From positions 18,234,489 to 18,298,488 of the forward strand of contig NC_088879.1 of assembly GCF_032884065.1 (NCBI RefSeq): a stretch of 64,000 nucleotides of DNA, given 5' to 3'. The position numbers and the translations under genes are program-made. Each line of letters begins with the position of its first letter. The stretch's first letter is position 1. This DNA is from Artemia franciscana. Lineage: Eukaryota; Arthropoda; Branchiopoda; Anostraca; Artemiidae. The notes beneath the pieces are model-generated. The model had not been told where the DNA came from. It did no database searches and saw only the letters and a program-made list of their open reading frames with translations. Positions 20,001 through 22,529 of the stretch are shown here, piece after piece.

Positions 20001-22399
20001 ATTTTATAACTTAAAGACCTTTCCCTTGAGGCTTTGGGGGGGGGTTCATTTTATCTCCGAAGGCATACTTTTTGGGCCTTTAAACTATGCTGAACAATAT
20101 CACTATCTCAAATTTTTGACCGGATGATTTTGGAAGAAAAGGGCATGGGAGAAGGTTGCCCTTCAATCTTTTTGGTCACTTAAAAAAGGTACTAGAACTT
20201 TTAACTTTTATTCGAATGAGCTCTCTCCCAATATTCTAGGACTATTGGGTAGATACGATCACCCCTGGGGCAAAAAACCCAAATAAACACGTAGCTGGGA
20301 TCTTTCTTCTGGTAAAAAAATACAAAATTTTACATTTTTGCATAAAATTGCTTGAAACCCTACAGTAGGTTCTCTGATACGCGGAATTTGATGGTGTGGT
20401 TTTATTCAGATTCTGTAACTTTTGGGGGGTGTCCCTCCCCCCTTCCAAAAAATCAGGCAAACTTTCTCAGGCTCGTAGCTATTTATGGGTAACAGTGAAC
20501 TTTATGAAACTTACGTATTTGGAATCAAAATAATAAGTAGATTTTTTTTTGATGAATTTATTGATACAAAAAATCCTCTTTTTTAGACTTTTGGTTACTG
20601 TTGAGCCGCAGCACTCCTTACTTACAGTTTGTTATCACAAACCGTGTGTTGGCTGCACATCTATACACAAGAGTGGAGGGGGGAGGGGTGAACTCCCTAC
20701 TCAAGGTCTGTTAGAAGGACTTCTCTTCCAGGGAAAATTTGAAATGCAGGCAAAAATGGATATTTATTTCTGGTTGCCCTTCTCCCTTTTCCCTTTTTGA
20801 AAGGTCCCCAGAACATCCAGAATGACGAATTTTGTATTTTCCAATTTCGTTGTCTCAAAGTGCTTAATGTCAGTATTTTTTTCTTTTGTAAATAATTATT
20901 TCTTGCTGTTCTTTAAAGCAAAGCAATCTTTAGTAGCTCCTGGATGAGCCTCCAAAATGTTGTTTTTCTTGTTTTGTGATTATTTAAAACCATTATGTTT
21001 TTGATAATTTCAGTTTTCACATTAGTCATGCAAAGTTACTTTTTCTGTTCTGTCGAAAAGTACTATGTCATGGTTCGGTTAAATTCAATAAATTAGTTTC
21101 TGTTGTTTGAATTAGCCTTAAGATCTATGTAGCGTGGTCAAAGTCAGTAGCAATGAAAGTCTTAATGCTTAGGCTTTTGTTTAGGAATCATTCCAGTATA
21201 ATCTATTCTAATTCACGCTCGTGTGTTTTTTCAACTTTTGTGTTTTATTCATGCCTGAAAGCTGGGATTTTCTTAGGTTTTTCTTTTGGTTGATCCGGAA
21301 TTATGAAGTTTTTAGAGCAGTACAACCTTTTTGTCTTTGTCTCCACATTGAACCGTGAAATAAATAATTGAACTGGAAAACGCTTTTTGTCTATTACATT
21401 AACATAAAGTAGTTGGAAGGAAAAATACTGCAAAGTAATTTGTCAATTATTTTACCATGGCAAGACTTTCAAATTTGCTCTGATCAATTTATTCTGTTTC
21501 GGTTTACACGTATAACTTATTTATCAACACCAGGGCCTTTGAACATTAGTGCAATGAATAAATGCAAATAATATTTATGTTTAGGTTTTCTAATTAGCTC
21601 GCAATCGAGAGAAGCTAGATGGCGTTGATCATCTGTCGCTCCAAGATTCTGTTGATGTTTCAAGTCCTATTAGTACATAACTTCGAAGACCAAACTGCCT
21701 TTCCATGACGACAAATAACAGTTCAAAATAGGGATAAAACCTTTTAATCGACAGTGAAACAAATATAAATTTGTTTTACTGAATATTTCGGACATATATA
21801 CAGTATCACTACATATACAGACAATGTATATATATCCGAAATATTCAGTTAGAAAAATTTATATTTTTTTCACTGTCGATTAAAAGGAATCATCCCTATT
21901 TTGAACTGCTATATTTTAGTCTTATTAGTCTTTTTGGTTTTTATAGTGTTTAATGCCTAGCCTTTGGTTTAGAATGTAAAACAAAATATTTTTTTAGGAG
22001 ATGTCCAATAATTTACCTTCTTTTTCAGTTATTGAAGTTTTTACTCTCTGAAATAGAAAGAACTAATATTACTAATCTATTTATACATTTTAAGTGTAAT
22101 AAGACTAATGTAGGTTTCGAGGCATTACTTGTGTTTAAGTCCCAGCAGTGCATTTTGTTTAAATTCGGTTCGAGTGGGCTAGTGTAACTGATTATCCTAC
22201 TTTTAAGAATATGTCACTTTTCAGAGTTCTTCTGGGGAAGGATTCCGAACAACTGGCATTATCGGCTCGTGTCATTGCTGAAAGGTTACACAAAGAAGGT
22301 CACATAAATCCTCTTATTCTGTCTTTTGGATATCCAGAGCTAGATTATAACCTTGCTCGAGCTGCTGCAGAAGAACTGGTGAAATTGAGGTGGTGGTAA
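7924..22399 (+). CDS. PSMG3: Proteasome assembly chaperone 3 (PSMG3), partial gene, two exons visible
   Basis: PSMG3 pairs with PSMG4 to chaperone assembly of the 20S proteasome alpha ring in the cytosol. Two exons join in phase: 7924-8034 (..[12 protein letters not shown]..) and 22225-22399 ([16 protein letters not shown].. to LVKLRWW, stop). Split codon AG|A gives Arg. The join matches the human C-terminal half as I remember it: 'MGTLVSLEP..' aligns with [12 protein letters not shown], 'KVLLGQDEP' with RVLLGKDSE, and both end in Trp after a short helix. Visible length is 94 residues; about 28 N-terminal residues are missing from an unplaced upstream exon. The 14.2-kb intron holds the Helitron cluster and families S and M. 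The stop codon touches the GPN2 start. Identification rests on motif alignment and splice phase. The family assignment is fairly secure. Confidence 0.8.
8300..8704 (-). pseudogene. Helitron helicase C-terminal fragment (duplicate piece)
   Basis: The open frame contains [20 protein letters not shown] and [16 protein letters not shown], typical of the 1B/2A part of the Pif1-like helicase of Helitrons. It repeats, at an offset of about 505 bp, the same segment found in 8722-9486 with a few substitutions, so it is a local duplication. Both ends fuse to short copies of the helicase tail ([16 protein letters not shown]). Confidence 0.75.
8722..9486 (-). pseudogene. Helitron Pif1-like helicase, C-terminal ~250 residues
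   Basis: The frame starts at an ATG (9486) and runs into the conserved tail. It carries helicase motif V ([10 protein letters not shown]) and motif VI ([10 protein letters not shown]), preceded by [13 protein letters not shown] and NGTRL. The Walker A and B boxes and the whole Rep nuclease are missing. Upstream (9490-9660) is the element's leader, so this is an internally deleted copy in which the 5' leader is joined directly to the helicase C-terminus. It is a deletion derivative, not a working helicase. Confidence 0.85.
9640..9680 (-). other. Helitron 5' end motif
   Basis: Read on the - strand, TATATATATAAATAAGTTG is followed by TCTGTCTG. The same motif recurs at about 11941-11969, 12083-12112, 12840-12866, 14031-14054 and 14101-14128, marking several element starts. 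It abuts the 3' hairpin of the next copy at 9683. Confidence 0.6.
9683..9745 (-). other. Double GC hairpin at a Helitron 3' end
   Basis: A perfect stem, TGTTGGGGTGGCGC with its complement around a TTC loop, spans 9683-9713. A second G/C stem spans about 9722-9745. On the - strand the first hairpin is followed by CTAG and T, which fits the Helitron 3' signature (hairpin, then CTRR, insertion beside T). Confidence 0.7.
9831..9922. repeat. (TA)n microsatellite
   Basis: An almost uninterrupted TA run of about 90 bases with one TG interruption. It lies at the 3' side of a Helitron helicase remnant; such runs seem to be part of this element family. Confidence 0.95.
9925..10130 (-). pseudogene. Helitron helicase tail, second copy
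   Basis: On the - strand, residues from the motif V region ([12 protein letters not shown]) to the tail [12 protein letters not shown] can be followed, broken by frame changes. It is colinear with 8722-8900 and with 12262-12470. Confidence 0.65.
10125..10270. repeat. GTCCCGGTCGTCATTTATA minisatellite
   Basis: Irregular tandem copies of TGTCCCGGTCGTCATTTATA and shorter GTCCCGGT units. The same array recurs at 12455-12750 at the same place relative to a helicase tail, so it belongs to the Helitron. Confidence 0.85.
10271..11885. repeat. T-rich (TTTTTAG)-type array with higher-order structure
   Basis: Degenerate TTTTTTAG/TTTTTACC units fill about 1.6 kb. A non-T block (ACTTATGTCCTGG... to GAGTGTCGTCATTTA) occurs at 10443-10552 and again at 11145-11250, about 702 bp apart. 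The array has therefore been amplified as a larger repeat. Open frames over it encode only Phe/Leu/Val-rich runs and are not genes. Confidence 0.85.
12103..12260. repeat. (TA)n microsatellite
   Basis: A run of about 155 bases of TA, almost perfect. Its open frames encode alternating Ile-Tyr and are artefacts. Confidence 0.97.
12262..12470 (-). pseudogene. Helitron helicase tail, third copy
   Basis: The - strand frame contains [20 protein letters not shown] and [15 protein letters not shown], i.e. helicase motifs V and VI. It then ends in the same tail as the other copies. Upstream it is joined directly to the minisatellite, so only the last ~70 residues of helicase remain. Confidence 0.8.
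12455..12750. repeat. GTCCCGG minisatellite, second array
   Basis: Units of TGTCCCGGTCGTCATTTATA alternate with TCTCTTTGAGTGTCCCGG. It is homologous to 10125-10270. A GACGTCATAT-containing segment follows (12763-12803). Confidence 0.85.
12860..13290. repeat. T-rich array flanking Helitron leader repeats
   Basis: TTTTTTAG-type runs surround a unique block (12990-13130) that contains CAACAATTTATAATAAACCT. That block recurs at about 13650-13765 and 13850-13955. Confidence 0.7.
13292..13618 (-). pseudogene. Possible Helitron N-terminal region fragment
   Basis: The 108-residue frame begins [17 protein letters not shown] and repeats this unit as [17 protein letters not shown]. It then has a basic stretch ([10 protein letters not shown]) and an acidic stretch ([13 protein letters not shown]). 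Glu/Ala-rich N-terminal repeats of this type are familiar upstream of the Rep domain of many Helitrons. It lies on the same strand and upstream of the helicase remnants. No Rep HUH motif is visible. Assignment is by resemblance and position only. Confidence 0.45.
13620..13965. repeat. Two direct copies of a ~180-bp unit
   Basis: CTATACTAAAAATTCCTCTT, CACGTGCCAAGCTTGCTAAA and GTTTTAAGGTTTTCGAATTA occur in the same order from about 13628 and again from about 13816. A third, more diverged copy lies at 12990-13130. Confidence 0.8.
14029..14128 (-). other. Two Helitron 5' end motifs
   Basis: CAACTTATTTTTATATATAT occurs at about 14033 and again at about 14105. They lie 70 bp apart and mark two nested or tandem element starts read on the - strand. 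Confidence 0.55.
14366..14442. other. Cluster of short perfect hairpins
   Basis: Three stems lie in 77 bases: AAGTGTTGC/GCAACACTT (14366-14387), TCCGGC/GCCGGA (14390-14404) and CGTTGC/GCAACG (14427-14442). The first is matched near 8057-8075, so this is likely a subterminal part of the Helitron. Confidence 0.65.
14446..15756. other. No recognised gene; PSMG3 intron
   Basis: Mostly unique AT-rich sequence with TCAAGTCAAGTCAA-like short repeats at about 14850 and 15560. A tRNA box-A-like TAGCTCAGCCGG occurs near 14930 without a convincing box B. Confidence 0.4.
15757..17822 (+). mobile_element. Family S element: tandem-array-bearing repeat
   Basis: It starts at TATGGCACTTG with a hairpin-like CTTGTAATTAACCAAG and ends with CATAAGTGCCATATGAGC, so the two ends share an inverted TATGGCACTT core. 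Between them lie about seven tandem monomers of roughly 275-300 bp (one half-length), each holding GATCGGATCTTAATGAAAT, TCTCAGAGCTCTTATTTTAA and GGAAAACGCTTAGAGTGGAG. GGGGGAGTTGGGGG runs recur. No coding frame was seen. The same family appears at 39170-41060, 41530-43460 and 44803-45607. Confidence 0.75.
17823..19287. other. No recognised gene; PSMG3 intron
   Basis: AT-rich sequence. Open frames at 17957-18620 on either strand show no domain, splice context or codon pattern that supports a gene. Confidence 0.4.
19288..20640 (+). mobile_element. Family M element, long form
   Basis: It opens with a palindromic part (19288-19632; CAACTGAAAGTAAGGAGCAA with its complement near 19600). It continues with a roughly 1-kb body containing CACTTAAAAAAGGTACTAGA and GAATGAGCTCTCTCCC, and ends near ACAGTTTGTTATCACAAACC. 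The body recurs at 29082-30545, 31060-31915 and, inverted, at 32140-32600. No protein is encoded. Confidence 0.65.
20641..21718. other. No recognised feature; PSMG3 intron
   Basis: AT-rich sequence without a supported frame or clear repeat. Confidence 0.4.
21719..21908. repeat. 190-bp palindrome (MITE-like hairpin)
   Basis: CAGTTCAAAATAGGGATAAA at the left end is mirrored by CATCCCTATTTTGAACTG at the right. TTTTAATCGACAGTGAAA and CTGAATATTTCGGACATAT pair further in. The loop is a short TA/CA-rich spacer around 21815. Confidence 0.85.
22225..22399 (+). CDS. PSMG3: PSMG3 terminal coding exon, abutting GPN2
   Basis: Acceptor CACTTTTCAG ends at 22224. One base completes the split Arg codon, then 57 codons and TAA (22397-22399). 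An in-frame ATG at 22211 lies inside the acceptor region and is not needed, because the upstream exon joins in phase. The exon does not end at the stop: it continues, with no intervening base, into the first codons of GPN2 and to the donor at 22529/22530. Confidence 0.8.

Positions 22400-22529: not shown

What the first reader, a model, noticed from the sequence alone, without database searches (positions are those of the whole stretch)
22225..22529. PSMG3 and GPN2 share one exon with zero bases between stop and start
The last PSMG3 codons (..LVKLRWW, TAA at 22397-22399) are followed immediately by the GPN2 ATG at 22400. Both coding segments lie in one continuous exon bounded by an acceptor at 22224 and a donor at 22530. 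I know of no description of this pair as a dicistronic unit; in human the two genes lie on different chromosomes. A shared transcript would couple a proteasome assembly chaperone to an RNA polymerase assembly GTPase.
Basis: partly seen in the sequence, partly recalled or inferred. Interest (0 to 1): 0.92.

Follow-up and report, generated by a model that had tools for sequence, protein, structure and literature searches.

The report
Two conserved genes sharing one exon
In the brine shrimp, the stop codon of a proteasome-assembly gene is followed directly by the start codon of a separate GTPase gene inside one exon, so the two are probably made from one messenger RNA; such two-gene messages are known in arthropods, but my few paper searches found no report of this pair.

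Summary
PSMG3 ends at TAA 22397-22399 and GPN2 starts at ATG 22400, same frame, in one exon 22225-22529. PSMG3 (PF10178, E=1.7e-8) and GPN2 (complete, 294 aa, four exons) are supported. The genome is the 1.27 Gb female Artemia franciscana assembly. Searches of it found no second credible copy of either gene, so both are probably expressed through this exon.

Most likely this is a dicistronic locus whose second ORF is reached by leaky scanning: the 286 nt of PSMG3 coding sequence in hand contain no ATG in any frame, against about 5.6 expected from composition. The emptiness lies in the amino-acid sequence, not in codon choice. The statistics are suggestive only (P about 0.015-0.03) and post hoc.

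Open points: PSMG3's first coding exon (about 29 residues) was not found in 108 kb upstream, no RNA data could be reached, a separate GPN2 promoter or leader exon is not excluded, and no related species could be compared. Dicistronic loci are a known arthropod kind (159 pairs in Drosophila); this is a new, unusually tight member.

The parts
7924..8034 (+). PSMG3 internal coding exon (about human residues 30-65 by alignment)
   Evidence: AG/GT bounded, in-frame join to 22225; with it PF10178 E=1.7e-8, without it 0.0014
22225..22529 (+). shared exon: end of PSMG3 plus start of GPN2; one match in the 1.27 Gb genome search
22225..22399 (+). PSMG3 last coding segment incl. TAA 22397-22399; no ATG in any frame
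22400..22529 (+). GPN2 coding exon 1, ATG at 22400 directly after TAA; start context TAAATGT (T at -3 and +4); next ATG 22478 is in frame
26550..26755 (+). GPN2 coding exon 2
34935..35049 (+). GPN2 coding exon 3
35914..36347 (+). GPN2 coding exon 4 with TAG 36345-36347
22336..22337 (+). internal AG that scores better as an acceptor (7.3 bits) than the PSMG3 acceptor at 22225 (4.1); would leave 62 nt before the GPN2 ATG; candidate for a GPN2-only leader
   Evidence: recalled weight matrix; unproven
22396..22397 (+). donor-like GT overlapping the stop (5.8 bits); splicing to 26550 would end PSMG3 at a TGA one residue early and remove the GPN2 start
   Evidence: unproven
22598..22603 (+). first AATAAA after the shared exon, possible intronic poly(A) signal for a PSMG3-only mRNA (15 AATAAA lie in 22400-26549)
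   Evidence: unproven

Best explanation
PSMG3 and GPN2 form a dicistronic locus in Artemia franciscana. A pre-mRNA from the PSMG3 promoter is spliced through 7924-8034, the shared exon and the other GPN2 exons, giving one mRNA with two complete ORFs. PSMG3 is translated from its own AUG; a share of scanning 40S subunits bypasses that AUG and, meeting no other AUG in the 286 nt in hand, starts at the GPN2 AUG at 22400. Shown: gene identities, shared exon, zero spacing, same frame, no second copy found, absence of ATG over 286 nt. Inferred: the mature dicistronic mRNA, and leaky scanning as the route to GPN2.
For: Both proteins have expected ends at the junction. Genome searches found no other credible copy: the shared exon DNA matches once, GPN2 only here (the paralogue on C19 reads like GPN3), PF10178 only here plus a C7 place with 3 stops that by eye does not resemble this PSMG3. 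GPN2's leader must therefore contain PSMG3 coding sequence, and PSMG3's mRNA must cross GPN2's start. The donor at 22530 (10.3 bits) is the strongest of the four gene-model donors. ATG count 0 in 286 nt vs 5.67 (base composition) or 5.56 (dinucleotide) expected; GPN2 286-nt windows hold 2-11; 0 of 10 other ORFs, which I picked from the 64 listed, have an ATG-free window of that length (one of the ten is only 270 nt). Human PSMG3's last 94 residues written with Artemia codons would hold 4.1 ATGs, Artemia's own 0.36. AUG-poor first ORFs mark leaky-scanning bicistrons (PMC11892635, sections 8 and 13 read).
Against: No transcript evidence. Synonymous recoding of the same protein expects only 0.34-0.40 ATG and gives zero in 60-66% of draws, so codon choice shows no avoidance; the case rests on the amino-acid sequence, where P(0)=0.015 (residue shuffles) to 0.020 (codon shuffles), and 2.8% of all 286-nt windows on the + strand are ATG-free too. 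The test was thought of after seeing the sequence. PSMG3's first exon, its AUG context and the 5' leader are unknown. The GPN2 AUG context (T at -3, T at +4) is weak by the usual rule (recalled). The acceptor at 22225 is weak.
Confidence: 0.5

Rival explanations
1. Two overlapping transcription units. GPN2 has its own promoter, in the 14 kb intron or inside the shared exon, or its own leader exon spliced to 22225 or to the better internal acceptor at 22338; PSMG3 ends at a poly(A) site in the intron after 22530. The exon is shared but no mRNA yields both proteins.
For: Internal acceptor 22338 scores 7.3 bits against 4.1 for 22225; the first AATAAA lies 68 nt past the donor. Of 159 fly dicistronic loci only 45 make both products exclusively from dicistronic transcripts (PMC4528330 passages). 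The ATG-free 175 nt would also suit a 5' leader.
Against: Five ATGs lie in the 400 nt before 22225, poor for a leader read straight through. The ATG-free state also holds for exon 7924-8034, which such a leader would not contain; that exon adds little weight, since its protein cannot encode ATG by synonymous change. Scores rest on a recalled matrix; 5.7% of all + strand AGs in the window reach 7.3 bits, and AATAAA is frequent here (15 in 4.1 kb).
Confidence: 0.28
2. Dicistronic mRNA in which GPN2 is translated by termination-reinitiation at the abutting UAA-AUG, so that GPN2 output follows PSMG3 output.
For: Zero spacing puts the post-termination ribosome next to the AUG. AUG scarcity can be explained in part by reinitiation too (PMC11892635 section 13).
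Against: The first ORF is about 123 codons (94 in hand plus about 29 by alignment); one cited prediction, from HIV-1 tat mRNA, puts the limit at about 55 codons (PMC4705651 passage). No UGGGA element of the calicivirus type (motif recalled) in the 286 nt.
Confidence: 0.12
3. Internal ribosome entry before 22400, or a spliced leader trans-spliced onto an acceptor inside the PSMG3 ORF.
For: Acceptor-like sites at 22338 and 22371; spliced leaders are reported in copepods (PMC4664967, title and start of abstract in the listing).
Against: Folding of 22300-22500 is no better than shuffles, z=+0.46, 135 of 200 shuffles at least as good. No Rfam family in the window (the genome was not searched for leader RNAs). 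None of the 8 titles listed, of 29 papers found, reports a spliced leader in Artemia.
Confidence: 0.06
4. The TAA is read through or is an assembly error, and the locus really makes a PSMG3-GPN2 fusion protein.
For: Both ORFs are in the same frame with one stop codon between them. Only one assembly was examined.
Against: PSMG3 ends in the same column as the human protein, so the stop is where it should be.
Confidence: 0.04

Closest known systems
Drosophila dicistronic loci (FlyBase; PMC4528330, passages seen)
   Same: Two conserved ORFs closely spaced on one strand in an arthropod; published stop-to-start range for exclusively polycistronic loci is -34 to 319 nt, and 0 nt falls inside
   Different: Different gene pair; no transcript shown here. 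The supplementary list of fly pairs was not seen. CG10222 (its identity as fly GPN2 is recalled) stands in one paper's gene list between sens and flr, with nothing I recognise as PSMG3 beside it
stoned and Snapin leaky-scanning bicistrons (as summarised in PMC11892635; original paper not seen)
   Same: First ORF poor in internal AUGs
   Different: Start context of the first ORF unknown here; no reporter test
Green algal bicistronic genes (PMC11892635, abstract and sections 6, 8, 13 read)
   Same: Short first ORF, AUG depletion before the second ORF
   Different: Median inter-ORF spacing is 183 and 40 nt in the two algae, 0 here; an animal locus with long introns
lemming (lmgA/lmgB) dicistronic locus, Drosophila (PMC3372440, passages seen)
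   Same: Small conserved first ORF upstream of a larger second ORF
   Different: 92 bp spacer; second ORF not detectably translated and not found outside Drosophilidae; here the second ORF is a conserved family with no other copy found

Membership tests
Dicistronic locus (FlyBase sense) | two distinct conserved protein-coding ORFs on one strand in one exon chain | tested here: met
Dicistronic locus (FlyBase sense) | one processed mRNA contains both ORFs | not testable with these tools
   no RNA reads available; Iso-Seq runs exist
Dicistronic locus (FlyBase sense) | stop-to-start spacing within the published -34 to 319 nt | tested here: met
   0 nt; range from PMC4528330
Leaky-scanning bicistron | few or no AUGs before the second ORF | tested here: met
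   0 in 286 nt of about 372 nt of first ORF expected by alignment; first exon and leader unseen; weak statistics
Leaky-scanning bicistron | weak start context of ORF1, short 5' leader | not testable with these tools
   first exon not found in 107,923 bases upstream
Termination-reinitiation (calicivirus-like) | UGGGA element upstream of the stop-start | tested here: not met
   none in 286 nt; motif recalled
Spliced-leader operon | leader RNA and trans-splice acceptor before ORF2 | tested here: inconclusive
   acceptor-like sites only; leader RNA not sought in the genome
PSMG3 / PAC3 | PF10178 match over cut-off, C-terminus aligned to 2z5e | tested here: met
   N-terminal about 29 residues missing; direct phmmer of the Artemia piece against the PDB found nothing at E<=10
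GPN2 | full-length GPN-loop GTPase nearer to GPN2 than to GPN1 or GPN3 | tested here: met
   156 of 290 aligned residues identical to human GPN2 as recalled (sequence unverified); the PDB hits are GPN3, GPN1 and archaeal-type GTPases, none named GPN2; a separate GPN3-like gene lies on C19

The most novel reading that the evidence does not exclude
An exclusively dicistronic mRNA for two conserved housekeeping genes, with zero spacing and a first ORF whose amino-acid sequence itself has been shaped to hold no AUG in any frame, so that proteasome-assembly chaperone and GPN2 output are set in fixed opposition by one leaky start codon.
Probability: 0.3. Interest if true: 0.65.

Novelty: new member of a known kind. 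Interest (0 to 1): 0.48.

Why it matters
If the dicistronic reading is right, a GPN-loop GTPase thought to be needed for RNA polymerase assembly (recalled) depends on translation from a downstream ORF, and the upstream protein may have given up Met, Cys and certain residue pairs to let ribosomes pass. That is testable with existing Iso-Seq data and by comparison across Branchiopoda. Such a locus could also mislead gene annotation into dropping or fusing one of the two genes (inference; the deposited annotation was not seen).

Tried and rejected
PSMG3 exon 1: not seen in window 1-7923 and no convincing candidate in 107,923 bases upstream of exon 7924 (best 25 segments shown; 84 candidates, 40 shown; 15 matches, all shown). 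The best-scoring candidate (about window -94925) was set aside because by eye it looks like a thrombospondin-repeat exon of another gene (not tested). Synonymous-codon tests for AUG avoidance: negative. IRES-like structure: negative. TURBS-like motif: negative. PF10178 place on C7: 3 stops inside; the matched strand read by eye does not resemble this PSMG3; my earlier look printed only the other strand. Relatives in viral contigs, GPN2 first 112 residues: 27 pattern matches, none confirmed. Phage, plasmid, E. coli and GTDB collections were not searched. Rfam and ARAGORN on the window: nothing. NCBIfam on GPN2: prokaryotic GTPase and ATPase models below their cut-offs, uninformative. First GPN2 model lacked exon 3 and was replaced by the 294-residue model.
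Full report
What was checked. The bases are as described...AGG TGG TGG TAA ATG TCT..., TAA at 22397-22399, ATG at 22400, no base between, one frame. The exon runs 22225-22529 between an AG and GTAAGT; on a recalled splice-site matrix the donor scores 10.3 bits, the acceptor a modest 4.1, which 17.5% of all + strand AGs reach.

Gene identity. Joining 7924-8034 to 22225-22399 gives 94 residues that match PF10178 (PAC3) at E=1.7e-8; the second piece alone gives 0.0014, under the curated cut-off, and the first alone nothing. A phmmer search of the PDB with the Artemia piece found nothing at E<=10, so the family call rests on the profile and on an alignment to human PSMG3: local score 51 against a shuffle mean of 25.1 and maximum of 52, reached by 1 of 2000 shuffles, with both proteins ending in the same column in Trp. 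The human sequence was recalled and then found identical to 2z5e_A. GPN2 is complete in the window: exons 22400-22529, 26550-26755, 34935-35049, 35914-36347, 294 residues, PF03029 E=1e-77. Its nearest solved chain is a GPN3 (201 bits), GPN1 lower (no chain named GPN2 was listed); against human GPN2 as I recall it, 156 of 290 aligned residues are identical, and a GPN3-like gene sits elsewhere on C19.

Where it is. The window is G000:C17:18,234,489-18,298,488 of a 1,270,528,402-base genome in 6,468 contigs. C17 is 45,252,357 bases long, exactly the scaffold N50 printed for the female Artemia franciscana assembly of PMC11492255 (1,270,721,445 bases, 6,486 scaffolds; passages seen). Contig C6468 has 15,822 bases and carries a COX1 that reads under the invertebrate mitochondrial code. 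The small difference in totals is unexplained, but I take the species as settled.

Copy number. The 305-base exon matches once in the genome. PF10178 gives two places: this exon, and a C7 place with three stops that by eye does not resemble this PSMG3. GPN2 gives its four exons here and three weaker places on C19. The tool warns that counts can be lower bounds. On this evidence there is no second PSMG3 or GPN2, so the animal probably makes both through this exon.

What follows directly. A GPN2 mRNA must begin upstream of 22400 and so carries PSMG3 coding sequence as leader. A PSMG3 mRNA that keeps this stop must run past 22399 and so reaches the GPN2 start. Either one mRNA carries both ORFs whole, or two overlapping units share the exon. 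Nothing in the sequence alone decides between these.

How GPN2 could be translated. On a shared mRNA, the 286 nt of PSMG3 coding sequence in hand contain no ATG in any frame. Base composition expects 5.67, dinucleotides 5.56. GPN2 windows of the same length hold 2 to 11, mean 6.4; none of 10 other ORFs, which I picked from the 64 (mostly transposon-like), has an ATG-free window of that length (one of the ten is 270 nt long, shorter than the stretch). Against this, 2.8% of all 286-nt windows on the + strand and 3.0% on the - strand are ATG-free, and shuffling residues or codons of the same protein gives zero with P=0.015 and 0.020. Synonymous recoding expects only 0.34-0.40: codon choice shows no avoidance, and the emptiness is a property of the amino-acid sequence. 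Read by eye from the translation, it has no Met and no Cys, no Asn, Asp, His or Tyr followed by Val, Ala, Asp, Glu or Gly, and only one Arg-Trp where an ATG could arise. Human PSMG3's last 94 residues written with Artemia codons would give 4.1; two of those are its own internal Mets. That fits long-standing selection against AUG in a first ORF, as reported for green algal bicistrons and, as that paper says, for stoned and Snapin (PMC11892635 sections 6, 8, 13), but the idea came after seeing the sequence, and one gene is one case. About 87 nt of PSMG3 coding sequence and the leader remain unseen.

Other routes. Reinitiation after a first ORF of about 123 codons is disfavoured by one cited limit of 55 codons (PMC4705651 passage), and no UGGGA element is present. 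RNA folding gives no sign of a structured entry site, z=+0.46. An acceptor-like AG at 22336-22337 scores better than the PSMG3 acceptor, and the first AATAAA after the exon is at 22598; these leave room for separate mRNAs. A donor-like GT overlaps the stop at 22396; joined to 26550 it would end PSMG3 at TGA one residue early.

Known or new. FlyBase annotates 159 dicistronic pairs, 45 of them with both products only from dicistronic transcripts, with stop-to-start from -34 to 319 nt for exclusively polycistronic loci (PMC4528330 passages). The present locus is of that kind and within that range. Four paper searches for the pair returned nothing. No relative of Artemia could be compared with these tools; the one collection scanned, viral contigs, gave none. 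That human PSMG3 and GPN2 lie on different chromosomes is recalled, not tested.

Verdict. Observation confirmed; dicistronic interpretation probable but unproven; leaky scanning the best mechanism, the whole reading at even odds.

Noticed in passing
37708-39980 and 42518-44805: A long inverted repeat downstream of GPN2: arms of about 2.3 kb, in six aligned pieces mostly 99-100% complementary (one 248-nt piece 92%), around a centre of about 2.5 kb.
   Followed up: partly
48324-48794 (-): Coding exon of Tim29 (PF10171, E=1e-36), on the opposite strand to GPN2.
   Followed up: partly
8722-9501 (-): Pif1-type helicase ORF (PF21530, E=3.1e-19), probably Helitron-derived (recalled association), inside the PSMG3 intron.
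   Followed up: partly
59446-61917 (+): Successive ORFs that look like one hAT-type transposon; the last, 61351-61917, matches Dimer_Tnp_hAT (PF05699, E=7.2e-11); 59912-60322 matched no Pfam family and the others were not searched.
   Followed up: partly
G000 genome-wide (L021-L024 and others): 75 places match COX1; 14 of them run from profile position 25 or less to 435-436, one being the 15,822-base mitochondrial contig C6468: many mitochondrial inserts or unplaced mitochondrial contigs.
   Followed up: no
L011, about window coordinate -94925: Exon-like ORF with a CNxxPCP motif, by eye a thrombospondin-type repeat of an upstream gene.
   Followed up: no
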